From assembly GCF_001510655.1 (NCBI RefSeq), contig NZ_LMVC01000004.1:147459-211458 (forward strand): a stretch of DNA of 64,000 nt, read 5' to 3'. Both the position numbers and the translations under genes were made by a program. Each line of letters starts with the position of its first letter. The first letter of the stretch is position 1. This DNA comes from Fictibacillus sp. FJAT-27399 (GTDB lineage: Bacteria > Bacillota > Bacilli > Bacillales > Fictibacillaceae). Below are positions 19,027-51,582 of this stretch, in pieces. The notes beneath the pieces were generated by a model. The model made no database searches. It was not told the DNA's origin and saw only the letters and a program-made list of their open reading frames with translations.

Positions 19027-19124
19027 TTTGGACAGTAAATATGCGATTTTGGACAGTAAATTTAAATTTTGGCTCGTATTTTACGCTTTTTGGACAGTAA
19101 ATCCTGCATCCCCGCCAGTAAATC
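19027..19124. repeat. Short direct-repeat array, unit TTTGGACAGTAAAT, 21-bp period
   Basis: GGACAGTAAAT starts at 19030, 19051 and 19092. A degenerate unit lies at about 19071 and CCAGTAAAT is in register at 19113. The spacers between units are unrelated in sequence. The array lies between the convergent pyrG and ywjG genes and runs up to the ywjG stop codon. Confidence 0.75.
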
Positions 19125-19653
19125 AATCTTCGTACTCTTCCAGGATCTCTTTTGCCGTTAAAAACAAGGCATAATAGGCGAATAACCCTGCCATGGCCGA
19201 AGGAATGCCGATTCGTTCTCCATTTTCAGCCGGAACAAGGCCTTTTTTCACCATTAAATCAATAAATGCATCGCAATGTGGAGCCGCTTCTTCCCCTTTT
19301 TCCTTGCGTGAGGCAAGAAAAATGATGCTCGCATCTGTGTTTTGTTTGATTTCCTGAAGCAGGCTGAGGACAGGCTCATCGTCATGAAAACGGGCGGAGG
19401 CAAGCACGGTATCTACCCTCGTTAACTGGCTGATCTCTTTTGTGTTCAGCGGCTTCGCATTTGAAAAAGCCTCTTGGCCATACAGCCCTTCCGCATTTAC
19501 TGCCTCCATCTCATCTTTTCCTGTAAAATAGACAGTGCCATGCGATAGAACAGTCTGCGCTAAGAGCCTGGCTGCGTCTTCAAAGGCAAATTCATTATCC
19601 TGCTGGATTTTAGAAAAAATCCCATTAAGCTGGGTGGAAAATATCTTTAACAT
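19123..19653 (-). CDS. ywjG: DUF2529 protein YwjG
   Basis: A 176-residue DUF2529 protein, the YwjG family found between pyrG and spo0F in Bacillus. The pattern of alternating helices and short strands, with GTVYFTGKDE and SIIFLASRK, suggests a SIS-like sugar-phosphate-binding fold, but no reaction is known. Strand and position are the same as in B. subtilis, divergent from spo0F. An AGGAGAT ribosome site precedes the ATG. Confidence 0.85.
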   Translation of the reverse strand: MLKIFSTQLNGIFSKIQQDNEFAFEDAARLLAQTVLSHGTVYFTGKDEMEAVNAEGLYGQEAFSNAKPLNTKEISQLTRVDTVLASARFHDDEPVLSLLQEIKQNTDASIIFLASRKEKGEEAAPHCDAFIDLMVKKGLVPAENGERIGIPSAMAGLFAYYALFLTAKEILEEYED

Positions 19654-19735
19654 AAGATCTCCTCTTCATTTCGGTAGTTTGGTTTAGTATAACGCATTGT
19701 TTTTTTTATTTCACTCGAAGCAGCAGGAAAACGAC

Positions 19736-19759
19736 AGGATTCACAGAATTAGTTAGAAT
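19736..19759 (+). promoter_or_regulatory. Probable sigma-H promoter of spo0F
   Basis: AGGATTC (19736-19742) and GAAT (19756-19759), 13 bp apart, fit the sigma-H consensus (AGGAWWW and RNNGAAT). B. subtilis spo0F is known to have a sigma-H promoter. It lies 40 bp upstream of the chosen start codon. Confidence 0.6.
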
Positions 19760-19798
19760 ATGGAATTGATCGAAAAAATTATGTCAGAGGTGAGCAGG

Positions 19799-20167
19799 TT
19801 GAGTAAAATATTGATTGTGGATGACCAATACGGAATTCGGATTCTTTTAAATGAGATTTTTCAAAAAGAGGGGTATCAGACGTTTCAGGCTGCAAACGGC
19901 GTGCAGGCTCTTTCGATCGTTGAAGAGGAAACACCGGATCTTGTGATTTTGGATATGAAAATTCCAGGGATGGACGGACTGGAAATTTTACGCCATGTCA
20001 AAAAAATGAATTCCTCCATTCAAGTCATCATCATGACCGCTTATGGCGAATTGGATATGATCCATGAAGCGATAAAGCTCGGGGCCATCACCCATTTTGC
20101 GAAACCGTTCGACATTGACGAAATTCGCGCAGCGGTGAGGAAAGAATTACCAATTAGCGCAGGATAA
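19799..20167 (+). CDS. spo0F: Sporulation phosphorelay response regulator Spo0F
   Basis: A 122-residue single-domain response regulator. It takes phosphate from sporulation kinases and passes it to Spo0B. Acidic pocket residues are in IVDDQYG (Asp8, Asp9), the phosphorylated Asp is about 52 ([10 protein letters not shown]), and TAYGE and FAKPFD give the conserved Thr and Lys. Nearly identical in these blocks to B. subtilis Spo0F. The TTG at 19799 with AGAGGTG upstream gives the known N-terminus; a longer in-frame ATG at 19760 begins inside the predicted sigma-H promoter and is unlikely. Confidence 0.96.
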
Positions 20168-20204
20168 GAAAAAATTCTACAAATCATTGACATATCGGCA
20201 TTGG

Positions 20205-20252
20205 TAGCGCTTGCACGCAAAAAGCCTGATTTATTGCGGTTTTCAAGCGCTA
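20205..20252. promoter_or_regulatory. Inverted repeat upstream of the fbaA promoter
   Basis: TAGCGCTTG (20205-20213) and CAAGCGCTA (20244-20252) are perfect 9-bp inverted arms, 30 bp apart, just upstream of an extended -10 (TGCTATAAT, 20259-20267). Each arm contains the palindrome AGCGCT. It looks like an operator or a looped pair of half-sites; the binding protein is unknown. Confidence 0.45.
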
Positions 20253-20258
20253 TTGGTA

Positions 20259-20267
20259 TGCTATAAT
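20259..20267 (+). promoter_or_regulatory. Extended -10 promoter of fbaA
   Basis: TGCTATAAT with a weak -35 (TTTTCA, 16 bp upstream). Transcription would start about 100 nt before the fbaA start codon. Confidence 0.6.
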
Positions 20268-20315
20268 AGGTTTGAAAAAAGACTAACTAATGTTTAACAT
20301 ATGGCATTTTCGGAA

Positions 20316-20352
20316 AAAGATTGAAGATGATTCTTTTTTCGTTTTTTTGTGC
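20316..20352 (+). terminator. Hairpin with T-run in the fbaA leader
   Basis: TCGGAAAAAGA pairs imperfectly with TTCTTTTTTCG and is followed by seven Ts, between the fbaA promoter and gene. It could be a partial terminator or attenuator; no competing structure is evident. Confidence 0.5.
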
Positions 20353-20377
20353 CAATAGTAAAGGGAGGACATGAAAC

Positions 20378-21241
20378 ATGCCTTTAGTGTCAATGAAAGA
20401 AATGCTCGAAAAAGGAAAAGCGGAAGGATATGCTGTCGGTCAATTCAACATTAATAACCTTGAATTTACCCAAGCGATTCTCAAAGCTGCTCAGGAAGAA
20501 AAATCTCCGGTAATTCTTGGCGTTTCAGAAGGCGCTGCTCGTTACATGGGTGGTTTTAAACTTGTCGTCAGCATGGTTAAAGAACTAATCGAAGAATATA
20601 AAGTAACTGTACCGGTTGCGATCCACTTGGATCATGGCTCCAGCTACCAAAAATGTGCTGAAGCAATCCATGCCGGTTTCACTTCCGTTATGATTGACGG
20701 ATCTCATTTCCCGCTTGAGGAAAACATTGCATTAACGAAAAAAGTTGTAGAACTTGCTCACTTCCACGGTGTGTCAGTTGAAGCTGAACTAGGCCGTATC
20801 GGCGGACAGGAAGATGATCTTGTAGTTGATGATGCTGAAGCAGCATACGCTATTCCTTCTGAATGTGATCAGCTTGTACGCGAAACAGGTGTAGATTGCT
20901 TTGCTCCTGCATTAGGAAGCGTGCACGGACCTTACAAAGGTGAGCCGAACCTTGGCTTCGGCCGCATGAAAGAAGTAAATGAATTAACTGGTGTTCCTCT
21001 TGTACTTCATGGCGGAACAGGAATCCCTACACACGATATCCAAAAAGCAATCTCTCTAGGTACAGCTAAAATCAACGTAAACACTGAAAACCAAATTGCG
21101 TCTTTCAATGCAGTAAAAGAATTTATTGCTGCCAACCCAGATAAATACGATCCACGTAAATACCTTACTGCTGCCCGTGATGCAATCCAGGAAACAGTTC
21201 AAGGTAAAATGCGCGAGTTCGGTTCTTCAAACAAGGCGTAA
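20378..21241 (+). CDS. fbaA: Class II fructose-1,6-bisphosphate aldolase
   Basis: A 287-residue zinc-dependent aldolase cleaving fructose-1,6-bisphosphate to DHAP and glyceraldehyde-3-phosphate. IHLDHGS carries the Asp and a zinc-ligand His (about 82-87). [16 protein letters not shown] and LHGGTGIP supply further zinc and phosphate-binding residues. AAAGGGAGG ribosome site. Length and position match B. subtilis FbaA, with transaldolase next. Confidence 0.95.
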
Positions 21242-21252
21242 GAATGATATGA

Positions 21253-21321
21253 AAATAAAAACGGCTCGTGCCGTTTTTATTTCTCTGCATGAAACCGCCT
21301 ATACATTATAGGCGGTTTCAT
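21253..21321 (+). terminator. Two consecutive hairpins after fbaA
   Basis: The first is AAAAACGGC-TCGT-GCCGTTTTT with a T-run (21253-21285). The second is GAAACCGCCTATA/TATAGGCGGTTTC (21290-21320). The first is a standard terminator; the second has a perfect 13-bp stem and little T-run. Confidence 0.8.
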
Positions 21322-21445
21322 TTACAATGAAGATGTAAAAAAAGGGTTACTAATTTCGGGTATGAAAGTTGTTGTGTGGAAAAGACTAAAAGGGAATTTA
21401 GACATCGTGTCTGTACAACCACTTTAATATAGGAGTGAATGAATA

Positions 21446-22096
21446 ATGAAATTTTTTATTGATACTGCAAATATTGACGAAATCCGCGAAGCACATGAGC
21501 TTGGCATCTTATCAGGGGTTACAACAAACCCAACTTTAGTGGCGAAAGAAGGCGTTGATTTTCATGACCGCATTCGTGAGATCGCTGCTCTTGTTCCTGG
21601 CTCTGTTAGTGCCGAAGTTATTTCATTAAAAGCGGAAGAAATGATTGAAGAAGGAAAAGTGCTTGCTGCTATCGCACCGAACATTACGGTTAAAGTTCCG
21701 ATGACTACAGAAGGCTTGAAAGCAGTAAAGGCGTTTAGTGAAATGAACATTAAAACCAATGTTACATTGATCTTTAATGCCAACCAGGCGTTATTGGCTG
21801 CAAGAGCGGGTGCTACTTATGTATCACCATTCCTTGGAAGACTCGATGACATCGGACAAGATGGTTTAGGATTGATTTCACAAATCGCTGAAATCTTTGC
21901 GATCCACGAACTTCCTGCCCAAATCATCGCAGCTTCTGTCCGCCATCCGGTGCACGTAACAGAAGCAGCCCTTCGTGGAGCACACATTGCAACGATTCCG
22001 CTCAAGGTCATCAAGGGCCTCGTGAGCCACCCATTAACTGACCAAGGGATTGAGCGTTTCTTAAGCGATTGGGAAGCTGTTAAAAACCGCGGCTAG
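21446..22096 (+). CDS. tal: Transaldolase (small TalC/YwjH type)
   Basis: A 216-residue transaldolase of the small single-domain class. [13 protein letters not shown] is the family N-terminus. The Schiff-base lysine is in NITVKVPMT (about Lys83), and [13 protein letters not shown] and [11 protein letters not shown] are conserved. It moves dihydroxyacetone units in the pentose phosphate pathway. It has its own leader and terminator, between fbaA and murA as in B. subtilis. Confidence 0.93.
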
Positions 22097-22115
22097 AAGA
22101 TACTATAACCTATCC

Positions 22116-22147
22116 AAGCACCACCTCCCGTGGTGCTTGTTTTTGGT
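22116..22147 (+). terminator. Terminator after tal
   Basis: Arms AAGCACCAC and GTGGTGCTT, then a T-rich run. Confidence 0.85.
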
Positions 22148-22189
22148 TTTTTACCATAACAAACACAGTTTTCTTATCAAAGGTTCTTT

Positions 22190-22455
22190 TCTAAAAGATT
22201 GTTGCTTTGGAACCTTCTTGCAAAGAGGCTTCAATGACAAGTTGATTGGAGTGCAAGGTGCGAGACTCCTCGAAAATGAATTTCACATTTTCTTCGTGCG
22301 ATATAACGCTGCCGAAGCCTTCCTTGTCCTGCGGGGGAAGCGTGACAGGTGAGACACGCAGACGCTTGCGCCGAGGGGCTCAGCGCACGCCCCGCGGAAA
22401 GCGAGCATCCTGAAGCGGAAATCAACCACTCTCAAGAGCAACAAAGGTTACGAAA
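22190..22455 (+). repeat. Family-1 modular intergenic repeat, copy 3
   Basis: A forward copy. The terminal inverted repeat is AAAGATTGTTGCTTTGGAACC at the left and AGAGCAACAAAGGTTACG at the right. It has the CGAAAATG...CATTTTC inner module but lacks the GTAGGCG..CGCCGGTAA module (GCGGAAAGCGAGC is uninterrupted). Confidence 0.85.
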
Positions 22456-22561
22456 TAGATTACCATAAAAAACCAAAATATTAGCATGATATTCCAGTTG
22501 TTGAGAATACTACAAGCAACAACGACTGGAGTTAACCGCTTGATGCAGAAGGGAGCAAACC

Positions 22562-23854
22562 ATGGAACAGAAGCTTATGATTGAAGGGGGTTATCCCCTT
22601 GAAGGAACCGTTCATATTAGCGGAGCCAAGAACAGTGCGGTTGCATTAATCCCTGCTACCATTCTTGCAGAATCCCAAGTCATCATAGATCAGCTGCCTA
22701 ATATATCAGATGTACGTTTGTTAAGAGATTTGTTGGAAGAAATCGGCGGAGAAGCCGAATTGGATGAAAATAATTCATTGACTGTTAATCCGGAAAAAAT
22801 GATTGCTATGCCGCTTCCCAACGGAAAGGTTAAGAAACTTAGAGCCTCTTATTACCTCATGGGTGCTATGCTTGGCCGTTTCAAAAAAGCTGTCATCGGT
22901 CTTCCGGGAGGCTGTAATCTTGGCCCAAGGCCTATTGATCAGCATATTAAAGGATTTGAGGCATTAGGTGCAAAAGTTACCAATGAGCAAGGAGCCATCT
23001 ACCTACGTGCAGATGAGCTCATCGGCGCACGAATCTATTTAGACGTAGTGAGTGTCGGCGCGACAATTAACATTATGCTTGCTGCGGTTAGAGCCAAGGG
23101 CCAAACCATCATTGAAAACGCGGCAAAAGAGCCTGAAATTATTGATGTTGCCACTCTTCTTACGAGTATGGGAGCAAAAATTAAAGGTGCAGGTACAGAT
23201 GTGATCCGAATCGATGGAGTTGACCATCTTCACGGATGCCGGCACTCTATCATTCCGGACCGAATCGAAGCAGGTACCTACATGATATTGGCAGCAGCGG
23301 TTGGCCAGCAAGTATTAATAGATAATGTTATTCCGCTTCATTTAGAGTCATTGATTGCCAAGCTCCGGGAAATGGGCGTTCATATAGAAACAAAAGATGA
23401 TCAAGTCCTTATTCATAACAGCGGAAATCCGTTAAAAAGTGTAGATATTAAGACTCTGGTTTATCCTGGTTTTCCTACGGATCTTCAGCAGCCGTTCACT
23501 TCATTGCTCACGAAAGCGGAAGGAACGAGTATCGTAACGGATACCATTTATTCTGCACGATTTAAGCATATTGATGAGTTGAGAAGAATGGGTGCCAACG
23601 TGAAGGTAGAAGGCCGATCTGCCATAATTAATGGACAGGCCCGCCTTGAGGGTGCCAAAGTAAAAGCCAGTGATCTCCGTGCAGGAGCGGCTCTTGTGGT
23701 TGCCGGTCTTATGTCAGAAGGTATCACAGAAGTTTCAGGTCTTGAACATATTGATCGCGGCTACGAATCACTTGTTGATAAACTGTTGGGGCTTGGCGCG
23801 AAAATCTGGCGTGAAAACCTTGATGTCGAGGAAATGGAAGAGATCGAGAAATAG
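22562..23854 (+). CDS. murAB: UDP-N-acetylglucosamine 1-carboxyvinyltransferase (MurAB/MurZ)
   Basis: A 430-residue enolpyruvyl transferase, first committed step of peptidoglycan synthesis. The fosfomycin-sensitive Cys is at about 118 in [14 protein letters not shown]. The N-terminus [18 protein letters not shown] is typical. Neighbours (tal before, glpX after) match the B. subtilis murAB locus; the other paralogue, murAA, is elsewhere. Confidence 0.94.
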
Positions 23855-23890
23855 GCGCTTTCGACAGGCGTCTCAGCTTTTCAATATGAT

Positions 23891-24037
23891 TCAGCTTCAG
23901 TGTCCTGGTCCTCGATGGATGAAAAGGAACATCTCTTTTCATCCTTGGCCACTTCGTTCTTGAGCAGAAAACAAAGAACGTTTTATGCTCAAGACCTCCA
24001 GTGCTAGTCGGACCATAACGGCCACTTCAGCATTTCT
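23891..24037 (+). repeat. Family-2 intergenic repeat, diverged copy
   Basis: The framework TCCTGG..CCTCGA, GGCCACTTC and CTCCAGTGCTAGTCGGACC is retained. The two inner hairpins have different arms from other copies but remain paired: GATGAAAAG/CTTTTCATC and TTGAGCA/TGCTCAA. It lies between murAB and glpX. Confidence 0.65.
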
Positions 24038-24078
24038 AATTTTTGTAAGCGTTTTTCTAGAAGGGGGAAGTTATTTCA

Positions 24079-25047
24079 ATGGAACGTAGTTTATCAATGG
24101 AACTAGTACGTGTTACAGAAGCCGCAGCACTTGCTTCAGCCCGTTGGATGGGCCGGGGCGTAAAGGATGAAGCAGATGATGCAGCAACAACTGCCATGCG
24201 CGATGTTTTTGATACTGTCCCGATGAAGGGAACGGTCGTCATTGGCGAGGGAGAAATGGATGAGGCTCCTATGCTTTATATTGGTGAAAAGCTGGGAACA
24301 GGCTATGGCCCGCGTGTAGATGTAGCGGTAGATCCTCTCGAAGGAACGAACATTGTGGCTTCCGGAACTTGGAATGCTTTAGCTGTTTTGGCTGTGGCGG
24401 ACCACGGAAACCTTCTGCATGCACCGGATATGTATATGGATAAAATTGCCGTAGGTCCAGAAGCGGTAGGCCAGATCGACATCGATGCACCAACCATCGA
24501 CAACCTAAGAGCCGTTGCCAAAGCACGTAATAAGGACATTGAGGACCTTGTTGCCATCGTCCTTAACCGCCCAAGACATGAGAAAGTCATCCAGGAGATC
24601 AGAGAAGCTGGTGCAAGAATTAAGCTGATTTCAGATGGTGATGTGGCTGCAGCCATTAATACAGCATTTGAAGGAACAGGCGTGGATATCTTATTTGGAT
24701 CAGGAGGAGCTCCTGAAGGTGTCATTGCCGCAGTAGCTTTAAAGTGCCTTGGTGGAGAAATACAAGGTAAGTTGCTTCCTCAAAATGACTCAGAATTAGA
24801 ACGCTGCCGCAGAATGGGGATCACCGACATTAATAAAGTCCTCCGTATGGAAGATCTCGTCAAAGGCGATGATGCGATTTTTGCTGCAACAGGTGTAACA
24901 GACGGAGAACTCTTAAAAGGTGTCCAGTTTAAAGGGACGATCGGTACGACGCACTCTGTCGTCATGCGTGCAAAGTCAGGTACCGTTCGATTTATCGATG
25001 GGCGCCACAGTCTGAAAAAGAAACCTGATCTTGTCATTAGACCATAG
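24079..25047 (+). CDS. glpX: Class II fructose-1,6-bisphosphatase GlpX
   Basis: A 322-residue GlpX-type fructose-1,6-bisphosphatase for gluconeogenesis. The metal and phosphate motifs [15 protein letters not shown] (about 57-71) and VDPLEGT (about 87-93) are clear, and [10 protein letters not shown] is conserved. Ribosome site AGAAGGGGGAAG. In B. subtilis this is ywjI, just before rho, as here. Confidence 0.93.
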
Positions 25048-25336
25048 TTCTTTTTATATAGTCCGGCGCCTATCTCTTCTGCATCATTTGTTCGGAAGAG
25101 GAAGTGTCCGGATTTTTACTTTTTTCATCCTGTCTTTATCTATGACTTGATTAAACCCACCATTTGTGGTTAAAATATGAAGTACTGTTTATTTATAATA
25201 TGAAATGTCCACTTCTGGTTTACTTACTTCAATAGTATCCTTCCAACCCTTCATTTCTGTTGCCCTGTTCTTTCATAAAAAACGATTAAAACAGAAAACA
25301 CAGTGTTTAGAAAATAGAATAAAGTGTGGTGTCATT

Positions 25337-26626
25337 ATGGGCTTAGTATTATCTGAATTAGAAACAAAAAAATTAAAAGAATTATATGAACTTGCAAGAC
25401 AATATAGAGTTCCTTATTATGGGAAATTAACGAAAAGAGAATTGATGTTTTCCATTCTTAAAGCACAGGCTGAACAGGATGGATATTCATTTATGGAAGG
25501 GATTCTCGAAGTTATTCCGAATGAAGGCTTTGGATTTTTGCGTCCGATCAACTACTCTCCAAGTTCCCAGGATATTTATATTTCAGCCTCGCAGATCCGC
25601 AGGTTTGATCTAAGAAACGGGGACAAGGTTTCCGGTAAAGTCCGTCCTCCAAAGGAAAATGAACGTTATTATGGATTGCTTCAGGTTGAAGCGGTAAACG
25701 GCGAGGATCCAGACACAGCAAAAGAACGTGTTCACTTCCCTGCATTAACGGCTCTTTATCCTGAAAAGAAAATGGTGCTTGAAACCGAGCGCACGAACCT
25801 TTCAACCCGTATCATGGACATGATTGCACCGGTTGGCTTCGGTCAGCGCGGATTGATTGTCGCGCCTCCTAAAGCTGGTAAGACCAGTCTTTTAAAAGAG
25901 GTCGCACACAGCATTTCGACTAACCATCCTGATACTGAACTGATTGTCCTGCTGATCGACGAGCGTCCGGAAGAAGTAACAGATATTGAGCGGTCCGTTA
26001 AAGGCGATGTCGTCAGCTCTACGTTTGACGAGGTACCGGAAAACCACATTAAAGTTGCAGAGCTCGTATTAGAACGTGCAATGCGCCTTGTGGAACATAA
26101 AAAAGATGTTGTTATCCTGTTGGATAGCATTACACGTCTTGCCCGTGCGTACAACCTTGTCATTCCTCCAAGCGGACGTACATTATCCGGGGGGATTGAC
26201 CCGGCTGCTTTCCATCGTCCGAAGCGCTTTTTCGGGGCTGCCCGAAACATTGAAGAAGGCGGGAGCTTAACGATTTTGGCAACGGCTTTGGTTGAGACGG
26301 GCTCTCGGATGGATGATGTGATCTATGAAGAGTTTAAAGGGACAGGCAACATGGAGCTGCACCTTGACCGTAAGCTTGCTGAACGACGAATCTTCCCTGC
26401 AATCGATATTCGCCGATCAGGTACGAGAAAAGAAGAAATGCTTATCCAGAAGGATCACCTTGAATCGTTATGGGCGATCCGAAAAACAATGGATGATTCG
26501 TACGATTTCGTAGATACGTTCATGAAGCGTTTACGAAAAACAACCAACAATGAGGATTTCTTCGCGATGTTTGAGGCTGAGAAGTCAGGCACGAACAAGC
26601 GCGTAAAATCATTGTCGAATTCCTGA
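25337..26626 (+). CDS. rho: Transcription termination factor Rho
   Basis: A 429-residue Rho helicase. The N-terminal Rho_N and cold-shock-like RNA-binding domains ([19 protein letters not shown]) are followed by the ATPase core. Walker A is in [13 protein letters not shown], and the Q-loop, [11 protein letters not shown] and [20 protein letters not shown] are almost identical to B. subtilis Rho. The ATG at 25337 gives the known N-terminal layout. The frame is open upstream to 25205, but that leader has no family match and I consider it untranslated. No strong ribosome site is visible, so the start is less certain than the gene. Confidence 0.95.
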
Positions 26627-26675: not shown

Positions 26676-26739
26676 ACTGCTATGTGCTTATTTTAACTCT
26701 GGGTCCTCAGGATTCAGGGCAGAAGGAGTTGAGAACGAA

Positions 26740-32984: not shown

Positions 32985-33022
32985 TGGAGAGGGCTCTCAG
33001 CTGTGCTGGGGGCTTCTTTTTT
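32985..33022 (+). terminator. Probable terminator after prmC
   Basis: AGGGCTCTCAGC pairs with GCTGGGGGCTTCT with mismatches, then six Ts. Confidence 0.6.
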
Positions 33023-33036
33023 GTGGCCGGAAGAAC

Positions 33037-33131
33037 GGAATTGAACGAAACTGGCGCTGAATTGAGCCGAACGGAGAATAATTGAGCGCAATTTAAAATA
33101 ATTGAGCGAAACAAGCAATAATTGATCCGAA
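33037..33131. repeat. Short direct-repeat array, unit AATTGAGCGAA, 20-21 bp period
   Basis: AATTGA starts at 33039, 33060, 33080, 33100 and 33120; full units read AATTGAGCGNA or close variants. The spacers are unrelated. It lies between the prmC terminator and the S-box riboswitch. Confidence 0.75.
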
Positions 33132-33244: not shown

Positions 33245-33388
33245 ATCTTATCCAGAGCGGTGGAGGGACTGGCCCTATGAAACCCGGCAACCTATTTTTA
33301 GAAGGTGCTAAATCCAGCAGGAGTAGATCCTGGAAGATAAGATGGAGCGGTCAAAAACTTCCCCTTATCTAAAGGGGAAGTTTTTTTT
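33245..33388 (+). promoter_or_regulatory. SAM-I (S-box) riboswitch with terminator
   Basis: P1 is ATCTTATC (33245-33252) with GATAAGAT (33336-33343). The core words AGAGCGGTGGAGGGACTGGC, CCTATGAAACCCGGCAACC and AAGGTGCTAAATCC are those of the S-box aptamer. A terminator (AACTTCCCCTT/AAGGGGAAGTT plus eight Ts) follows at 33355-33388. Its left side contains CTTATCT, complementary to AGATAAG of the P1 3' strand, giving the expected antiterminator. High SAM should shut off the two genes downstream. Confidence 0.95.
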
Positions 33389-43068: not shown

Positions 43069-43103
43069 AGAAAAAAACCGCCTGTAGAAGGGCGGTTTTT
43101 TTT
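43069..43103 (+). terminator. Terminator after ywlG
   Basis: AAAACCGCC and GGGCGGTTTT with a T-run. Confidence 0.9.
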
Positions 43104-43140
43104 GTACTGGAGCGGGTGGTTTTTTATGAAAATGATGGGT

Positions 43141-43257
43141 TTTGCAAGTATTTGAAGCATTTTTGCAAGTAAGTGGGCGGTTTTCGCAAGTAAACGCAGA
43201 GTTTCCGCAAGTAAACCATGTCGAACCGCAAGTAAAAGTATCAATTCCGCAAGTAAT
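43141..43257. repeat. Short direct-repeat array, unit CCGCAAGTAA, exact 21-bp period
   Basis: GCAAGTA starts at 43144, 43165, 43186, 43207, 43228 and 43249: six units at exactly 21 bp. The intervening 12-13 bp are unrelated to each other. It lies between the convergent ywlG and RpiR genes, after the ywlG terminator. Some frames stay open through it with a seven-codon periodicity, but there is no other sign of coding. Confidence 0.88.
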
Positions 43258-44243: not shown

Positions 44244-44283
44244 CAAACCGTAATCATGGTTTGTTTGAAAGGGGCATTTATAA

Positions 44284-45180
44284 ATGCAAATCGGAATGAT
44301 CGGCCTAGGTAAAATGGGTTACAATCTTGTTCTTAATCTGCTCGACCACAACCATGAGGTAGTAGCGACAGACGTGAACAAAGAACAGGTGAAAAATATT
44401 ACGAACGATGGAGCAACAGGCGTTGAATCGATCAAAGAACTAGTCAGCGGACTAAGCACACCGCGTGTGGTTTGGATGATGGTACCTGCGGGAAACATAA
44501 CGGAAGATGTTCTTGCTGAACTGAAAAACGTATTGGAGCCTGGAGATATTGTGATCGACGGCGGAAACTCCAACTATAAAGATACACTGCGGCGTGCAGA
44601 AGAGTTAAAAGAAAAAGAGCTTCACTTTGTCGATGTAGGGACAAGCGGAGGCACTGACGGAGCACGAAACGGTGCTTGTACAATGATCGGTGCAGAGCCT
44701 GAAGTATTTGAAATCATCGAACCGATTTTCAAAGATCTTTCCGTGGAAAACGGCTACCTCTATACAGGAAAAGTCGGAAGCGGACATTTCTTGAAAATGG
44801 TTCATAACGGCATCGAGTACGGTATGATGCAGGCGATCGCTGAAGGATTCGAAGTTCTTGAGAAAAGCCAGTTTGATTATGACTATGAAGCGGTTGCGAA
44901 AATGTGGAACCACGGTTCAGTTGTCCGCTCTTGGCTCATGGAGCTGACTCAGAGCGCATTCTCCAAAGATCCTAAGCTTGAAGGCATTAAAGGTGTGATG
45001 AACTCTTCTGGAGAAGGAAAATGGACAGTGGAAGCTGCCCTGGACCTTCAAGTTCCAGCACCGGTTATCGCTCTTTCCCTCATGATGCGCTACCGTTCAC
45101 TTGAGGACGATACGTTCACAGGCAAGGTAGTAGCTGCTCTTCGCAATGAATTCGGCGGGCACGCAGTGGTAAAAAAATAA
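44284..45180 (+). CDS. gnd: 6-phosphogluconate dehydrogenase, short YqeC/GndA type
   Basis: A 298-residue decarboxylating 6-phosphogluconate dehydrogenase. NAD(P)-binding GMIGLGKMGYN is at 4-14, VDVGTSGGTDGA and catalytic Lys in GHFLKMVHNGIEYG are conserved. This short class lacks the long C-terminal extension of the NADP-dependent enzyme of about 470 residues and often prefers NAD. Paired with gntK under the divergent RpiR regulator. Confidence 0.93.
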   Translation: MQIGMIGLGKMGYNLVLNLLDHNHEVVATDVNKEQVKNITNDGATGVESIKELVSGLSTPRVVWMMVPAGNITEDVLAELKNVLEPGDIVIDGGNSNYKDTLRRAEELKEKELHFVDVGTSGGTDGARNGACTMIGAEPEVFEIIEPIFKDLSVENGYLYTGKVGSGHFLKMVHNGIEYGMMQAIAEGFEVLEKSQFDYDYEAVAKMWNHGSVVRSWLMELTQSAFSKDPKLEGIKGVMNSSGEGKWTVEAALDLQVPAPVIALSLMMRYRSLEDDTFTGKVVAALRNEFGGHAVVKK

Positions 45181-45191
45181 TTTCAAGCAAA

Positions 45192-45230
45192 GGGGGTGAC
45201 TTATTGTAATAGTGTCACCCTCTCTTTTTG
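45192..45230 (+). terminator. Terminator-like hairpin after gnd
   Basis: GGGTGAC pairs with GTCACCC, then TCTCTTTTTG. If efficient, it would separate gnd from gntK, or allow partial read-through. Confidence 0.65.
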
Positions 45231-45231
45231 A

Positions 45232-45413
45232 TGTCTAGCTCAGCGCCCAGGATGAAAACATGTTCTTGTTTTCAGCATAGGTTCTCGATAGATGAAAAGT
45301 ATGATCTTCTTTTCATCATTGGTCGCTTCACTCTTACCCCTCAACACAAAAAGCGTGTTGCTGTATAAGAGTTCCAGCGCTTGTCGAACCTTAGCAGGGC
45401 GCTTGCGCTTTTC
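45232..45413 (+). repeat. Family-2 intergenic repeat, full copy
   Basis: Starts TGTCTAGCTCAGCG and ends GGCGCTTGCGCTTTTC. Internal hairpins are GAAAAC/GTTTTC, GATGAAAAG/CTTTTCATC and CTCTTAC/GTATAAGAG. It sits between gnd and gntK. Confidence 0.8.
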
Positions 45414-45495
45414 TTTTTATCATGTAATTTCAAACGGACTTCGTTACATACTAAGCTATAGACAGGCAAGTGTAAGATCGGAAAGGATGGTAGGT

Positions 45496-47043
45496 ATGGA
45501 TTCAAAAAAGTACTTGATGGGTGTGGACATCGGGACAACGAGTACGAAAGCAGTGATATTTGACCGAAAAGGAGCTGTCATTTCTCAGCATACAGTGGGC
45601 TATCCGCTGTTAAGTCCAACGCCGTCTACAGCAGAGCAGGAGCCGGAAGAAATTTTGAGAGCCGTATTTACCTGTATTAAACAAAATATGGCAGAGAGTC
45701 TCGTTTCTCCGGATGATCTGGAGCTGATCTCATTCAGTTCAGCGATGCATAGTGTCATTGCAGTGGATGCCAAGGGGAATGCACTGACGAAGAGTATCAC
45801 GTGGGCGGATAACAGAAGTGCTTCCTATGCCGAAAAAATTAAGGAAGAACTGAACGGCCATGAAGTTTACTTAAGAACAGGTACACCGATCCACCCGATG
45901 TCGCCGCTGTCAAAGCTTCTCTGGATGAAGCATGAACTGAATGAAGCCTATACGCTTGCACATAAGTTCATCGGGATCAAAGAGTATGTGTTTTACAAGC
46001 TTTTCGGAGAGTTTCTTATCGACTACTCCATCGCATCATCAACAGGAATGATGAACCTTGAAAAGCTGGAATGGGATGAGGAAGCATTGAGCATTGCCGG
46101 CATTACGAGTGAAAAACTTTCCACGCTTGTTCCGACTACCCAAGTTGTAAAAGGGCTTGCGCCTGAACTTGCCGAGAAACTGGGCTTACGCACGGAAACT
46201 CCGTTTATTATTGGAGCCAGTGACGGCGTGCTTTCCAACCTTGGTGTTAACGCGATTGAACCGGGTGTTGTTGCGGTTACGATCGGGACAAGCGGTGCCA
46301 TCCGTACGGTCAGTGACAGGCCGATCACCGACCAGAAAGGCCGGACGTTCTGTTATGCGCTGACAGATAAACATTGGGTGATCGGGGGACCTGTAAACAA
46401 CGGCGGCATGACGTTCCGGTGGGTCAGAGACCAGTTCGGTGCCGCTGAAGCAGAAACAGCAAAGCGCCTTGGAGTCGATCCTTACGAGATGCTGACTGAG
46501 ATCGCAAAAAAGGTCTCTCCCGGAGCCGACGGGCTTTTATTTCACCCGTACATGGCAGGAGAACGAGCGCCGCTCTGGAACGCCAATGCGCGCGGCTCAT
46601 TCTTTGGGCTTGCTCTCTACCATAAAAAAGAGCATATGATCCGGGCGGTGCTCGAAGGAGTTATTTTCAACCTTTACAGTGTCTTGCTCGCTCTTCAGGA
46701 ATTAATCGGGATTCCAAAAGGGGTGCAGGCGACTGGCGGGTTTGCCCGTTCTGCTCTTTGGCGGCAGATGATGGCTGACATCTTCAATCAAGATGTGACG
46801 ATTCCTGAGAGTTTCGAAAGCTCTTGTCTCGGGGCGGTCATCCTTGGATTGTATGCATTAGAAGAAATTGATGATTTCTCCATCGTATCCGAGATGGTCG
46901 GCAGCACGTATCAGCACAAGCCAAACCCTGAAAACGTCGATACGTATCAGGAGCTGATGTCCATCTTCCTATCCGTCTCACGGAGCCTGGAGGATGAGTA
47001 TAAACAGATTGCCGATTTCCAAAGAAAAAGGCTGGAACAATAA
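45496..47043 (+). CDS. gntK: Gluconokinase (FGGY family)
   Basis: A 515-residue FGGY-family kinase. The N-terminal phosphate motif is MGVDIGTTSTKAV, SFSSAMHSVIAVD and the ATP-site GVVAVTIGTSGAIR follow, and ATGGFARSALWRQMMADIF is near the C-terminus. It phosphorylates gluconate to 6-phosphogluconate, the substrate of the gnd product. ATG 45496 has GAAAGGATGG upstream; the frame is open back through the family-2 repeat but that is not coding. Confidence 0.9.
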   Translation: MDSKKYLMGVDIGTTSTKAVIFDRKGAVISQHTVGYPLLSPTPSTAEQEPEEILRAVFTCIKQNMAESLVSPDDLELISFSSAMHSVIAVDAKGNALTKSITWADNRSASYAEKIKEELNGHEVYLRTGTPIHPMSPLSKLLWMKHELNEAYTLAHKFIGIKEYVFYKLFGEFLIDYSIASSTGMMNLEKLEWDEEALSIAGITSEKLSTLVPTTQVVKGLAPELAEKLGLRTETPFIIGASDGVLSNLGVNAIEPGVVAVTIGTSGAIRTVSDRPITDQKGRTFCYALTDKHWVIGGPVNNGGMTFRWVRDQFGAAEAETAKRLGVDPYEMLTEIAKKVSPGADGLLFHPYMAGERAPLWNANARGSFFGLALYHKKEHMIRAVLEGVIFNLYSVLLALQELIGIPKGVQATGGFARSALWRQMMADIFNQDVTIPESFESSCLGAVILGLYALEEIDDFSIVSEMVGSTYQHKPNPENVDTYQELMSIFLSVSRSLEDEYKQIADFQRKRLEQ

Positions 47044-47052
47044 CCGTAAGGA

Positions 47053-47312
47053 GGAGCTGTTCAGAAAGTCATAGTAAACTGACCTTCTGGCAGCTCCTTT
47101 GTTTAGAAAGGCATCTTCTTTGATTAGTTGATTGGAGTGGAAGGTGCGAGACTCCCGCGGGATGAGCGTGACAGGTGAAACCCGCAGGCGCAAGCGCCGA
47201 GGGGTTCAGCGCACGCCCCGCGGAAAGCGAGCTGCCTGGAACGGAAATTAACTGCTGCCAGATAGACATCCTGTTTCTATGCTTGCTAACGGCTTATTGG
47301 ACAGCTCCTACT
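47053..47312 (+). repeat. Family-1 modular intergenic repeat, copy 4 (hairpin-ended type)
   Basis: It starts with the hairpin GGAGCTGTTCAGAAAGTC.../GACCTTCTGGCAGCTCC (47053-47097) that also serves as gntK terminator and ends ATTGGACAGCTCC. The core lacks the CGAAAATG palindrome module: GCGAGACTCCCGCGGGATGAGCG runs straight on. It shares the hairpin ends with copies 1 and 6. Confidence 0.85.
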
Positions 47313-47432
47313 TACCTGAAAAAATGGAAGCGGCTACTCTTTTTTAAATTAAAAGAGACGTAACAAATCCCCGGAAGGCTATGTTACAATGGGTTTGAAT
47401 TAAGGACTTTTACACGAAGGGGATGCGCACAC

Positions 47433-48668
47433 TTGGAAAAGCTAGCTGTTCAAGATCAAGAAGTTTTTGCTGCTATACAGGACGAACTAGGCCGTCAGCG
47501 GAATAAGATTGAGCTTATTGCATCAGAAAACTTTGTAAGTCAGGCGGTAATGGAGGCTCAAGGATCCGTACTGACCAACAAGTACGCGGAAGGATATCCT
47601 GGACGCCGTTATTACGGAGGATGCGAATATGTTGACGTAGCTGAGGATTTAGCAAGAGACCGTGCCAAGAAAATCTTTGGAGCGGAACATGTCAACGTTC
47701 AGCCTCATTCCGGTGCACAGGCGAATATGGCTGTGTATTTTACCGTATTGGAGCCAGGTGACACTGTCCTCGGAATGAATCTATCACACGGAGGGCATTT
47801 GACTCACGGAAGCCCAGTTAACTTTTCCGGCGTTTTGTACAATTTTGTTGAGTACGGGGTGGACAAAGAAACTCATCTCATCAACTATGAGGATGTCCGC
47901 CAAAAGGCACTTGAGCATAAGCCGAAAGTGATTGTGGCTGGTGCGAGTGCCTATCCAAGAGCTATTGATTTCAAAAAGTTCCGTGAGATTGCCGATGAAG
48001 CAGGAGCGTATCTCATGGTAGACATGGCGCATATCGCTGGGCTTGTGGCAGCGGGGCTTCATGAGAATCCGGTTCCTTACGCTGATTTTGTAACAACAAC
48101 TACGCATAAAACATTGCGCGGCCCTCGCGGCGGAATGATTTTCTGTAAAGAAGAGTTTGCCAAGAAAATTGATAAATCCATTTTCCCTGGAATCCAGGGT
48201 GGACCCCTTATGCATGTCATTGCAGCTAAAGCTGTCGCATTTGGCGAAGCATTAAGCGAAGACTTTAAAACGTATGCCGGACAAATCATTGATAACGCAA
48301 AAAGGCTGGCTGATTCTCTTAAAAAAGAAGGAATCACGCTTGTGTCCGATGGCACAGACAATCATTTGATCCTGATTGACGTAAGCAAGCTCGGCATTAC
48401 GGGCAAGATTGCTGAAAAAGCATTGGATGATGTCGGTATTACCGTAAACAAAAACACGATTCCATTCGATACTGAAAGCCCGTTTGTAACAAGCGGAATC
48501 CGTATCGGTACTGCTGCTGTTACATCCCGTGGCTTCGGACTTGAAGACATGGATGAAATTGCATCCCTGATCGCGCTTGTTGTTAAAAATCCTGAAGGTG
48601 AAGAAGCATTGAAGGAAGCAAGCGAGCGTGTAGCTGCTCTTGCCGGGAAGTATAAGCTGTACGAGTAA
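47433..48668 (+). CDS. glyA: Serine hydroxymethyltransferase
   Basis: A 411-residue PLP enzyme converting serine and tetrahydrofolate to glycine and methylene-tetrahydrofolate. The PLP lysine is in [15 protein letters not shown] (about 226). [34 protein letters not shown] is the substrate-binding block. TTG start with GAAGGGGATG upstream, matching the B. subtilis N-terminus. Its own terminator follows. Confidence 0.96.
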
Positions 48669-48682
48669 GAAAAGAGATGAAA

Positions 48683-48714
48683 GAAAAAGGCGCCCTTAAA
48701 GGCGTCTTTTTTTG
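48683..48714 (+). terminator. Terminator after glyA
   Basis: AAGGCGCC-CTTAAA-GGCGTCTT followed by Ts. Confidence 0.8.
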
Positions 48715-48719
48715 TAGCT

Positions 48720-48993
48720 GGCTGTTTCGTAACCTTTGTTGCTCCTTAGGAGTGGTTGATTTCCGTTTCAGGATGCTCGCTTTTACCGGCGTAAACGCCT
48801 ACTTTCGCGGGGCGTGCGTTAAGCCCCACGGCGCAAGCGCCTTTGGGTCTTACCTGTCACGCTACCCCCGCAGGACAAGGAAGGCTTCGGCAGCGTTATA
48901 TCGCACGAAGAAAATGTGAAATTCATTTTCGAGGAGTCTCGCACCTTGCACTCGAATCAACTAAATGTTCCCAAAGCAACAATCTTTTAGAAT
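48720..48993 (-). repeat. Family-1 modular intergenic repeat, copy 5 (reverse)
   Basis: In reverse complement it starts AAAAGATTGTTGCTTTGGGAAC and ends GGAGCAACAAAGGTTACG. It has both optional modules: the CGAAAATG..CATTTTC palindrome and GTAGGCGTTTACGCCGGTAA between CCGCGAAA and AGCGAGC. The region between it and 49178 has a weak hairpin (GAGGTGA/TCACACCTC, 49023-49055) and the bdbD leader. Confidence 0.85.
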
Positions 48994-49178
48994 AGCCCCC
49001 AAGTCTTTTACCTCAAAGGCGGGAGGTGATAGCTGGCGGTTCAATCACACCTCGCTTAAATTCCGTAAAGTTAAGAGAATGTTCATTTGTAAATTGCAGA
49101 AAACTTGTATACTCTTAAGGAGAATTGATCTGTGATTGAATAGTTAGTATATAAATTTAAGGTAGTAGAGGTGAAAAG

Positions 49179-49925
49179 ATGGCTAAACAAAAACCAAAAG
49201 GAAAGAGCAAGGCAAAGTCTCAGACGAAGAACTATGTTCGAAACAAGAACCAGAAATCATCAAGCTGGATTTTCTGGATGATCGGTATTATTGCGTTAGG
49301 TATCATTGTCGTCTTGTTTGTGGGCAATCCTGGGGACAAGGGGAAAGACTCGAATCAAAATGTCTCGATTGATTATAAAGGGCAGCCTTACTTAGGTGAT
49401 CAATCTGCTGATGTGAAGGTTATTGAATTTGGGGATTATAAATGCCCGATCTGCAAAAATTTCAACATGTCATTTTTCCCTGAAGTTGATAAAGACCTGA
49501 TTAAAACAGGAAAAATAAAGTTTTATTTTATCAACTACCCGTTCATCAACGTAGATTCAAGGCGATCGGCACAGTTTGCGGAAACCGTGTATGCGGAACT
49601 AGGCAACGACAGCTTTTGGAAGTTCCACGAGCTCTTATATAAAAAGCAGCCCGCAGACCCAAAAGACGAACACCGGGATATCTTTAAAGAGGACTTCCTG
49701 GTGAAGACGCTGGCAGAAGCGACGTCTGAAAAAGATGCGGCCAAAGTGAAAAAGGCTTTCAGCAGCTCGAATCATGATGAGGACGTAAAGAAGGATGAGG
49801 CACTCGTAAGCAAGCTAAACGTGGACTCTACTCCGACACTCTTTGTAAACGGCAAAAGGTTTACAGGAAGCACGTACGGAGACTTTAAGAAACAAGTAGA
49901 AGAAGCAGCGAAAGGGAAGAAGTAA
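49179..49925 (+). CDS. bdbD: Membrane-anchored thiol-disulfide oxidoreductase BdbD
   Basis: A 248-residue DsbA-family protein. A very basic N-terminus (residues 1-28) is followed by one membrane anchor (30-48), then an extracellular thioredoxin-fold domain with CPIC at 89-92 and the cis-Pro in DSTPTLFVNGK. It oxidises secreted thiols and is re-oxidised by BdbC. Paired with bdbC one base downstream. In B. subtilis glyA and upp are adjacent, so this pair is an insertion relative to that order. Confidence 0.92.
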   Translation: MAKQKPKGKSKAKSQTKNYVRNKNQKSSSWIFWMIGIIALGIIVVLFVGNPGDKGKDSNQNVSIDYKGQPYLGDQSADVKVIEFGDYKCPICKNFNMSFFPEVDKDLIKTGKIKFYFINYPFINVDSRRSAQFAETVYAELGNDSFWKFHELLYKKQPADPKDEHRDIFKEDFLVKTLAEATSEKDAAKVKKAFSSSNHDEDVKKDEALVSKLNVDSTPTLFVNGKRFTGSTYGDFKKQVEEAAKGKK

Positions 49926-49926
49926 G

Positions 49927-50328
49927 ATGAACAAGCCTTTGTTGCTGAGCTGGCTGACGGCCATCATCGCGGTCATCGGCTCACTTTACTTCAGTGAGGT
50001 CATGCATTACGTTCCGTGTACGTTTTGCTGGTACCAGAGGATCCTGATGTACCCGCTCGCCGTATTTCTCGGTGTGGCTTTCTACCATCAGGACAGCAGA
50101 ATTGCCCGTTATGTGCTGCCTCTCTCTGTTTTAGGTATATTTGTGTCAGGCTATCACATCGCACTGCAAAAGATTCCGGCATTGCAGGAATTTGAAGTAT
50201 GCACATCAGGTGTGCCTTGTTCGCAGGATTATATCAACTGGCTGGGCTTTATTACGATCCCGATGCTCGCCTTCACAGCCTTTGTGATCATTACAGTGAG
50301 CATGATCATATTGAGCAGAAAAGGATAA
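49927..50328 (+). CDS. bdbC: Disulfide bond formation protein BdbC
   Basis: A 133-residue four-helix DsbB-family membrane protein. First redox pair CTFC at 31-34, second Cys92 and Cys98 (VCTSGVPC). It passes electrons from BdbD to quinone. It starts just after bdbD. The hairpin beginning repeat copy 6 is 14 bp after its stop and probably terminates the pair. Confidence 0.93.
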   Translation: MNKPLLLSWLTAIIAVIGSLYFSEVMHYVPCTFCWYQRILMYPLAVFLGVAFYHQDSRIARYVLPLSVLGIFVSGYHIALQKIPALQEFEVCTSGVPCSQDYINWLGFITIPMLAFTAFVIITVSMIILSRKG

Positions 50329-50341
50329 CCGTCTTGCCGCA

Positions 50342-50614
50342 GGAGCTGCCAGAAAGTCATAAACTGACCTTCTGGCAGCTCCTTTTAAAAAATTTTGATT
50401 GTGGAGTCATTACTTGCAAAACAATCTCCATTGACAAGTTGATTGGAGTGTAAGGTGTGAGACTCCAGCGGGATGCGCGTGACAGGTGAAACCCGCAGGC
50501 GCTTGCGACGAGGGGTTCAGCGCACGCCCCGCGGAAAACGAGCAGCCTGGAACGGAGATCCACTACTTCCAGATAGACAGCACCTTTTAGTGTTATAGCC
50601 ATATTGGACAGCCT
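50342..50614 (+). repeat. Family-1 modular intergenic repeat, copy 6 (hairpin-ended type)
   Basis: Begins with GGAGCTGCCAGAAAGTCA.../GACCTTCTGGCAGCTCC (50342-50382) plus TTTT, a near-perfect terminator. Ends ATTGGACAGCC. It lacks the CGAAAATG module; has AGACTCCAGCGGGATGCGCGTGACAGG. The region after it to upp (50615-50744) shows only the upp ribosome site and leader. Confidence 0.85.
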
Positions 50615-50744
50615 CATGTTTTTCGAATTGGAAGCTTTTTAGACCTTGAAGTGGCTCCTTTTTTTCTGTAAAATGCGGAAGAGGTTATGTGCAAAGAAAA
50701 AGCTCGGGTGGACAAGCCCGTTGTGAAAAAGGAGAGGTAGCAGG

Positions 50745-51374
50745 ATGGGTAATGTTTTTGTTCTGGATCATCCATTGATACAGCATAAATTAACACATAT
50801 TCGTGACGTTGAAACAGGAACAAAGGAATTTCGTGAGCTTGTGGATGAAGTAGCGGGATTGATGGCTTTTGAAATCACGCGGGATCTTCCGCTTGAGGAG
50901 GTAACCATTCAAACTCCTGTAGCTGAAGCGCAAATGAAAGTAATTGCAGGGAAAAAGCTGGGACTTGTACCGATTCTCCGTGCTGGTCTTGGAATGGTAG
51001 ATGGCATCTTAAAATTGATTCCAGCAGCGAAAGTTGGACATGTAGGTCTATATCGCGACCCGGAAACACTTTTGCCAGTTGAATACTACGTTAAGCTTCC
51101 ATCCGATGTGGAAGAGCGCGACTTTATTGTGATCGATCCGATGCTGGCAACTGGCGGTTCAGCTGCTGCAGCTATTACTTCCCTGAAGAACCGCGGTGCG
51201 AAAAACATTAAGTTGATGTGTCTCGTTGCTGCTCCTGAAGGAATCGAATTGATCCACAAGGACCATCCTGAAGTGGACATCTATTTGGCAGCCCTTGATG
51301 AGAAACTCAATGACCACGGCTATATCGTTCCTGGTCTTGGTGATGCAGGGGATCGTCTTTTCGGAACAAAATAA
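50745..51374 (+). CDS. upp: Uracil phosphoribosyltransferase
   Basis: A 209-residue uracil salvage enzyme converting uracil and PRPP to UMP. PRPP-binding [18 protein letters not shown] (near 126) and the uracil-binding [16 protein letters not shown] at the C-terminus are clear. ATG 50745 with GGAGAGG upstream. Between glyA and atp as in B. subtilis. Confidence 0.96.
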
Positions 51375-51379
51375 GCGAA

Positions 51380-51421
51380 GTTGAAGAAGCACCGGCGGAA
51401 GTCTCCGATGCTTCTTTTTTT
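51380..51421 (+). terminator. Terminator after upp
   Basis: AAGAAGCA...GGCGGA/TCCG...TGCTTCTT with a T-run. Confidence 0.8.
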
Positions 51422-51486
51422 GTGGGCGAAATGATGGAAGGGGGTATAAATGTAGCGAATCGCGTCGAATGTGTCGTGGATAAACG

Positions 51487-51582
51487 GTTCGATAAAAAAT
51501 GTGGACGTTTCGATAATATATCAACGTTTTCAATAATAAAAAGAGATTTTCGATAATAAAATCAGGAATTCGATAATAAAAA
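51487..51582. repeat. Short direct-repeat array, unit TTTTCGATAATAAAA, 20-21 bp period
   Basis: The C of TTCGATAATA starts at 51490, 51511, 51531 (CAATAATA), 51551 and 51571. The spacers are unrelated. It lies between the convergent upp and lipoprotein genes. The following 51583-51760 is AT-rich and shows nothing further. Confidence 0.8.

What the first reader, a model, noticed from the sequence alone, without database searches (positions are those of the whole stretch)
19027..51582. Four arrays, four different words, one common period: a class of phased intergenic arrays
Arrays at 19027 (GGACAGTAAAT), 33037 (AATTGAGCGAA), 43141 (CGCAAGTAA) and 51487 (TTCGATAATAAAA) share a 20-21 bp period, unrelated spacers, 5-6 units and a position just after a transcription terminator. 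Three of four lie between convergent genes. The words differ completely, so they are not copies of one mobile element. What is conserved is the architecture. This is the strongest candidate here for an undescribed system.
Basis: partly seen in the sequence, partly recalled or inferred. Interest (0 to 1): 0.75.

Follow-up and report, generated by a model that had tools for sequence, protein, structure and literature searches.

The report
Nuclease-linked phased DNA repeat arrays
Short DNA words repeated every two turns of the helix between genes turn out to be families of matching sites, each family apparently tied to its own nuclease-like gene that carries the same word just in front of it, which looks like an undescribed partnership of repeats and proteins in Bacillus-like bacteria.

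Summary
The arrays are real. In 851 kb (19%) of this Fictibacillus genome, 33 word arrays have a 20-21 bp period; nine other period pairs give 0-2 each. The window's four words belong to genome-wide families sharing a skeleton (TTT-[C/G]G-NNN-TAA).

The key finding lies outside the window. The genome has six intact paralogues and one pseudogene of a ~325-aa protein with a NERD nuclease-like domain and a zinc ribbon. All seven have an array just upstream, each with a different word. Of 91 such loci from 39 genomes, 84 have a flanking 20-21 bp array, against 2-6 at other periods. In the three words tested this way, the word beside the gene predicted which genomes hold most arrays of it. Words change four times slower than spacers. 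At two loci gene and word differ together between near-identical flanks.

I infer a cognate protein/array system that works like RAYT/REP but is unrelated to it (no hairpins, no Y1 transposase). Binding, cutting and spreading are inferred, not shown; one array family here (GATAATAAA) lacks an exact partner gene.

The parts
19009..19123 (+). Array of the GGACAGTAAAT family: leader AGTTTACATAATGGCGGTTT, then words at 19030, 19051, 19071 (degenerate), 19092 and 19113 (divergent)
   Evidence: Sequence; same leader and word in two arrays of C7; present in G004 with changes. No own NERD gene has an array of this word alone; the array before the NERD gene C7:237566 holds two GGACAGTAA units among GGCATGTAA and CGCACGTAA units. 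NERD genes of G030 and G068 carry this word.
33039..33131 (-). Array of five units, AATTGAGC(C/G)AA on +, read TTCG(C/G)CTCAATT on -
   Evidence: Same word in the array upstream of the NERD gene C7:463404-464330. The G004 copy lacks one unit of about 20 bp.
43123..43257 (+). Array of the GCAAGTAA family: leader TTTATGAAAATGATGGGTTTT (43123-43143) and six words every 21 bp from 43144
   Evidence: 99 pair matches genome-wide, 0 in the reversed-pattern control; same leader and word upstream of the NERD gene C7:127547; four units in F. terranigra, two remnants in F. enclensis, none in F. fluitans.
51450..51581 (+). Array of the GATAATAA family: leader with GTCG motifs ending ATAAACGG (51450-51487), five words from 51488
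   Evidence: In G004 the leader is kept but words and spacers differ (TTTGAA(A/C)ATAAA). Nearest own NERD gene by word is C6:54124 (TTCGAGAATAAA), not an exact match.
32991..33023 (+). Terminator-like stem and T-run before the 33039 array
   Evidence: consensus scan only
43071..43110 (+). Terminator-like, near-palindromic stem and T-run before the 43141 array
   Evidence: One search lists it on the - strand; the + strand reading is

Best explanation
The arrays are dispersed cognate sites of a multi-paralogue protein family. Each family member is a chromosomal gene for a ~325-aa protein with a NERD (PD-(D/E)xK nuclease-like) domain, a zinc ribbon and a conserved C-terminal region. Shown: most such genes carry, about 100 bp upstream, an array of a word that differs between paralogues; for the words tested, dispersed arrays of that word are found mainly in genomes that have that gene; words are constrained while spacers drift. 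Inferred: the protein binds one word per two helical turns along one face of the DNA, regulates itself through its own array, and its nuclease lets arrays spread, expand and be replaced through repair, as proposed for RAYT and REP. Dispersed arrays then persist where they do little harm: 3' of genes, between convergent genes, after rRNA operons. My odds: cognate link of arrays and NERD protein about 0.95; the RAYT-like spreading mechanism about 0.5.
For: Seven of seven own NERD-family loci (six intact, one pseudogene) have an upstream array, seven different words. 84 of 91 loci in 39 genomes have an array in the 1.5-kb flanks and 69 of 91 one that ends within 330 bp 5'; nine control periods give 2-6 and 0-2; own non-NERD genes 162 of 760 and 22 of 760. 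Prediction test: GAACATAAA-type pairs 32 in G004 against 1 in own; GGACAGTAAA 20 and 10 in the two genomes with that NERD word against 3, 1 and 26 zeros; TCGCGGATA 26 and 34 against 1, 1 and 26 zeros; reversed controls 0. Without the array beside the gene these counts are 29, 17, 7, 22 and 30. Word constraint: 10/627 against 41/659 in spacers, p 2e-5. At two loci gene (76.5%, 70.4% DNA identity) and word differ between flanks of 94.5-97.5%. E46, D79, E92, K94 invariant in 40 aligned members. Family not found in 50,697 phage records; only six hits of at most 25% identity in 72,556 plasmids.
Against: No binding or cutting was tested. Own GATAATAAA arrays (29 pairs) and own GGACAGTAAA arrays have no NERD gene with exactly that word in the own genome. 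In G004 the GCAAGTAA gene is cut short (253-aa frame) while 63 pair matches remain. Seven of 91 loci have no array, and 15 more have none ending within 330 bp upstream. G002 and G005 have NERD genes with GCAAGTA words but only one strict CGCAAGTAA pair each. No clean insertion edges or target duplications were seen. Spacers of a family mostly differ, so recent whole-array copying is not visible outside the rRNA-linked arrays. Over all pairs, protein and word similarity correlate weakly (rho 0.09).
Confidence: 0.65

Rival explanations
1. Host chromosome elements: NERD proteins coat arrays at the 3' ends of transcription units and act as insulators, roadblocks to read-through or nucleoid organisers.
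For: Convergent excess 15 of 36. Arrays after the 5S gene of rRNA operons: GGCATGTAA arrays 73 bp and GCAAGTAA arrays 334-355 bp after 5S in three G004 operons, GCAAGTAA 71 bp after 5S in own C3, and a TCGCGGATA array after 5S in another genus, G070. Word constraint.
Against: Arrays are lost or replaced between strains of one species. Several words and proteins per genome are not needed for one structural role. An active-site signature would be unnecessary.
Confidence: 0.2
2. Defence or self-marking: the nuclease attacks incoming DNA and the arrays mark or titrate it on the chromosome.
For: Nuclease signature; many paralogues, pseudogenes and fast allele change; NERD domains occur in phage-defence proteins (weak NERD-part matches to PglW and MAD6).
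Against: No match to a defence model near its cut-off; absent from phages and nearly so from plasmids; defence-island context was not examined.
Confidence: 0.1
3. Ordinary regulon: the NERD protein is a regulator and each array is an operator.
For: Array at a regular distance upstream of its own gene (median 102 bp to the matched coding region).
Against: Dispersed arrays are not in promoter positions: 4 of 36 divergent against 104 of 432 gaps (p 0.07 against the other gaps), 15 of 36 convergent.
Confidence: 0.08
4. Plain minisatellites made by replication slippage, without function.
For: Whole-unit gains and losses; some arrays beside NERD genes are long and nearly uniform (54 units in L194).
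Against: Constrained words between drifting spacers, shared leaders and the association with NERD genes do not follow from slippage.
Confidence: 0.02

Closest known systems
RAYT / REP (BIME, REPIN) systems (PMC2817692 and PMC3116915: abstracts and section lists seen)
   Same: Chromosomal nuclease-type gene next to its cognate repeat; several groups per genome with different repeats; presence of the gene correlates with abundance of its repeat; extragenic dispersal; gene and repeat change together; gene changes faster than its neighbours at two loci here.
   Different: Protein is NERD/PD-(D/E)xK plus zinc ribbon, not a Y1 tyrosine transposase; sites are non-palindromic short words in one orientation with a 20-21 bp period, no hairpins; the array is mostly upstream only (arrays on both sides in 16 of 91 loci).
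TAACTGA direct repeats of Beggiatoaceae (PMC4679880: abstract and section list seen)
   Same: Short intergenic words in direct sets, many per genome, suspected protein sites.
   Different: One heptamer shared over distant taxa, mostly just upstream of start codons, no partner gene known; here many words, 3' positions and a partner gene.
Iterons and multi-site transposon ends (recalled, no call)
   Same: Direct repeats about 20-22 bp apart that bind one protein copy each.
   Different: No origin, Rep protein or transposon body was recognised at these sites; dozens to hundreds of dispersed copies per chromosome.
Stoperators of mycobacteriophage L5 (recalled, no call)
   Same: Oriented short asymmetric sites scattered between genes and bound by one protein that blocks transcription.
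   Different: Phage repressor system; single sites and not phased arrays; no nuclease.

Membership tests
RAYT/REP | Partner protein is a Y1 (HUH) tyrosine transposase | tested here: not met
   Pfam finds NERD (PF08378) in 40 of 40 members and no transposase domain apart from weak zinc-ribbon matches
RAYT/REP | Repeat is a palindrome that folds into a hairpin | tested here: not met
   Six arrays folded as single-stranded DNA: z-scores -0.47 to +1.08
RAYT/REP | Gene lies beside its cognate repeats | tested here: met
   84 of 91 loci have a flanking array; both sides in only 16 of 91, so the RAYT rule 'always flanked by two' is not met
RAYT/REP | Presence of the gene goes with abundance of its repeat | tested here: met
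   Three words tested over 7, 30 and 30 genomes; exceptions: own GATAATAAA and GGACAGTAAA arrays without exact gene, few strict GCAAGTAA pairs in G002 and G005
RAYT/REP | Repeats are mobilised by the protein | not testable with these tools
   Presence/absence between strains seen, without clean edges
NERD domain proteins (PF08378) | Match over Pfam's cut-off | tested here: met
   77.2 bits against cut-off 22.1 for C7:127547; 40 of 40 members matched
PD-(D/E)xK nucleases | Conserved E, D, ExK residues | tested here: met
   E46, D79, E92, K94 invariant in 40 sequences; that these are the catalytic residues is recalled from the superfamily signature
PD-(D/E)xK nucleases | DNA cleavage | not testable with these tools
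   Needs purified protein
Known anti-phage defence systems (PADLOC, NCBIfam) | Match to a defence protein model | tested here: not met
   Only weak partial matches: PglW (5 of 6 members, best E 2.3e-4) and MAD6 (6 of 6, best E 9.7e-11; 32 bits against cut-off 460 for the first member)
Conserved structured RNA (Rfam) | Family match at an array | tested here: not met
   Two matches in the window, neither at an array

The most novel reading that the evidence does not exclude
NERD alleles are word-writing systems: when the NERD gene at a locus is replaced by an allele of another specificity, dispersed arrays are rewritten in place to the new word, keeping leader, unit number and phase. This genome and G004 would be caught on the two sides of such a switch (TTCGAGAATAAA gene with GATAATAAA arrays, against TTTGAACATAAA gene and arrays), with the array at window 51487 rewritten under a kept leader.
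Probability: 0.25. Interest if true: 0.95.

Novelty: categorically new. Interest (0 to 1): 0.85.

Why it matters
It would tie a nuclease-related protein family of unknown role to specific DNA words and to many intergenic sites, and give a second, unrelated case of a REP/RAYT-like partnership between a protein and a repeat. With 71 gene-word pairs in hand (intact gene plus array), the protein-DNA code and the role of the arrays become directly testable. The family is common in this order: 86 of 120 genomes and 54 of 74 genera searched.

Tried and rejected
Coding origin: 21-bp GCAAGTAA arrays keep a reading frame, but arrays with mixed 20/21 spacing do not (read). DNA relatives of one array in plasmids: only weak matches of 11-15% coverage among those listed. 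Clean transposon edges: not found. Which protein segment sets the word: correlations by segment are too weak to say (rho 0.02-0.10); only the two switched pairs hint at residues about 176-250, before and in the zinc ribbon. Solved relatives by sequence: only ribosomal-protein zinc ribbons at E 0.38-0.89. Literature: nine searches ran in open-licence PMC papers; in the listings I saw no description of this system; one passage notes a NERD gene near upp in Bacillus methanolicus (PMC12802215, passage seen).

Rows dropped or doubtful. Of 41 arrays listed for context four fell inside crude ORF calls and one at a contig end, leaving 36; two of the 41 (C7:231982, C7:266342) match no family and are probably chance, and C7:231982 is among the 36 with arbitrary orientation. 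The 91-locus table includes a pseudogene, truncated genes and three distant G293 loci (two without array, the third with an unrelated-looking one); it leaves out six fragment loci, of which four have an array (two of them one gene) and two do not. Loci outside the genus were best hits or from multi-copy genomes, not a random draw; the match list was capped. could use only 13 same-family orthologous pairs; replaced or missing arrays could not enter. The patterns are three of many possible words and also match the array beside the gene itself (3, 3, 3, 4 and 4 of the matches in G004, G030, G068, G104 and G070). Similar words do occur in paralogues of one genome (L250/L251 in G035).
Full report
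CHECK OF THE OBSERVATION. The window lies in a 4,503,641-base genome (G000:C8:147459-211458) of Fictibacillus; by one window protein the nearest named relative is F. terranigra (98%). Three of the four arrays pass a strict scan, the fourth is weaker. On 464 kb the scan finds 18 arrays and none in 10 local dinucleotide shuffles. On 851 kb a looser chain scan finds 33 arrays at period 20-21 and 0-2 at each of nine other period pairs. Three of the four lie between convergent genes; in the sample 15 of 36 intergenic arrays do, against 69 of 432 gaps (p values).

WHAT THE ARRAYS ARE. The words form families: GCAAGTAA (99 pair matches in the genome, control 0), TTCGATAATAAA, TTTGGACAGTAAAT, CGCC(A/C)GTAAAT, TTGGCGGGTA, TTCGAGAATAAA and TTCGCTCAATT. 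In one orientation they share a TTT-[C/G]G-NNN-(T/A)AA skeleton. Several families have a conserved leader before unit 1: TTTATGAAAATGATGTGTTTTG for GCAAGTAA, GTCG motifs ending TATAAACGG for GATAATAA and its relatives, TAGTTT(A/C)CCATAAT for GGACAGTA and GGCGGGTA. GCAAGTAA arrays mostly have six units, GATAATAA arrays mostly five. In 13 GCAAGTAA arrays, spacers at the same index are a little more alike than at other indices (0.40 against 0.36, permutation p 0.0025) and alternate in type, which suggests old common descent of whole arrays. Folding as single strands gives no hairpin signal in six arrays. In 78 ten-kb loci of other Firmicutes taken for another gene, 14 arrays of at least four units were seen at period 20-21 and 0-4 at eight other period pairs, so the class is not confined to Fictibacillus.

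WORDS ARE CONSTRAINED, ARRAYS TURN OVER. In 13 orthologous pairs between this genome and G004 (same species) words differ at 10 of 627 positions, spacers at 41 of 659, leaders at 18 of 315 and flanks at 258 of 3,906 (word against spacer p 2e-5). Selection or homogenising conversion could both give this. Whole units are gained or lost. At C7:171132, C7:175851 and window 51487 G004 has an array of another family; at C7:147753 and C7:197294 none; at C7:143961 none was matched but the flanks are interrupted. At window 51487 the leader is kept while words and spacers differ. Window arrays 19027, 33037 and 43141 are present in G004.

THE NERD LINK. Among 763 crude ORFs of the sample, one family had three paralogues of 324-328 aa, all directly downstream of arrays with three different words. 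They carry a NERD domain (PF08378, E 1.7e-21). The whole genome has six intact members and one pseudogene. All seven have an array just upstream, in gene orientation, each with its own word: GCAAGTAA, GGCATGTAA (mixed with CGCACGTAA and GGACAGTAA), CGCCAGTAA, GGCGCGTA, TTCGAGAATAAA, GGCTCAATT, GGCGGGTA. A NERD protein of another architecture in the same genome (C9:307485) has only a weak three-unit match about 2.4 kb from its NERD domain. In six other Fictibacillus genomes, 12 of 13 long NERD loci have an upstream array and the thirteenth (L162) has two downstream. In the order 86 of 120 genomes have members at E up to 1e-20; across the phylum 3 of 249 at 1e-30, own included. In all, 84 of 91 loci from 39 genomes have a 20-21 bp array in the 1.5-kb flanks and 69 have one ending within 330 bp upstream. 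Nine other period pairs give 2-6 and 0-2. Ordinary genes of the own sample give 162 of 760 and 22 of 760. The median distance from array end to the matched coding region is 102 bp.

PREDICTION TEST. Words read beside NERD genes were searched in whole genomes. GAACATAAA-type pairs: 32 in G004, which has that gene, 1 in own, 4 in G002, 0 in four others. GGACAGTAAA: 20 in G030 and 10 in G068, which have it; 3 in own, 1 in G074 (NERD word GGATAGTAAA), 0 in 26. TCGCGGATA: 26 in G104 and 34 in G070, which have it; 1 each in G002 and G025; 0 in 26. Reversed-pattern controls were 0. The array beside the gene itself gives 3-4 of these in each positive genome. Against a perfect fit: GATAATAAA pairs (29 in own, 7 in G004, 4 in G006) have no exact partner gene in own; G002 and G005 have genes with GCAAGTA words but one strict CGCAAGTAA pair each; G004 keeps 63 such pairs while its gene for that word is cut to a 253-aa frame.

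WORD SWITCHING. Of seven NERD loci judged orthologous between own and G004, five keep their word and two do not: GGCGCGTA against GGCATGTA, and TTCGAGAATAAA against TTTGAACATAAA. There the flanks are 94.5-97.5% identical and the gene 76.5% and 70.4%, against 93.5-98.7% for the gene at four unswitched loci. Divergence is highest around residues 176-250. Among 71 gene-word pairs, 19 pairs of proteins 60-92% identical have similar words (mean 0.67; 0 of 5000 permutations reach it), and below 50% identity the median is about 0.30; over all pairs the correlation is weak (rho 0.09).

HOW IT MAY WORK. Shown: the association, its word specificity in the cases tested, constraint on words, joint change of gene and word, invariant E46/D79/E92/K94 and three of four zinc cysteines with the fourth in at least 90%, and a chromosomal habit. 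Inferred: the protein binds its word; the two-turn period lets copies sit on one face of the helix; the upstream array gives feedback; cutting and repair make arrays spread, grow and be replaced. Placement after 5S in rRNA operons of two genera with unrelated words is the best point for a host role; the near-identical rRNA-linked arrays of G004 may owe their spacers to exchange between rRNA operons.

COMPARISON AND NOVELTY. It resembles RAYT/REP in the features listed under membership, but fails the Y1 transposase and palindrome features, so it is not a member. In the listings of nine literature searches of open-licence PMC papers I saw no description of it. The label 'categorically new' rests on that limited search and on unrelated parts; a reader who counts every repeat with a cognate nuclease as one kind would call it a new variant.

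Noticed in passing
L264-L266 (G004), L258 (own C3), L262 (G070 C4): rRNA operons are followed by arrays: in three G004 operons a GGCATGTAA array 73 bp and a GCAAGTAA array 334-355 bp after 5S; own C3 GCAAGTAA 71 bp after 5S; in another genus a TCGCGGATA array after 5S. In G104 C9 (L261) the array lies before the 5S instead; L263 has 5S but no called array.
   Followed up: partly
G004:C2 (4,354,756 bp): The 20 GCAAGTAA arrays are all outside 1.25-3.15 Mb (largest gap 1.9 Mb, uniform placement p 2.5e-4), so they avoid one half of the chromosome; GAACATAAA arrays do occur there.
   Followed up: no
spacers of GCAAGTAA arrays, e.g. the fifth unit boundary near window 43220: A second motif, TGTCGAA(C/T)C, recurs in spacers of alternate units and resembles GTCG motifs in the leader of the GATAATAA family.
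   Followed up: partly
L194 (G046), L187 and L221 (G110): Arrays beside some NERD genes are very long: 54, 24 and 31 units, with partly uniform spacers.
   Followed up: no
window 33245-33343 and 26697-26728: SAM riboswitch and L31 ribosomal protein leader; the riboswitch begins about 110 bp after the 33039 array.
   Followed up: no
window 15740-15797: Two copies of a 29-bp repeat, 75% matches.
   Followed up: no
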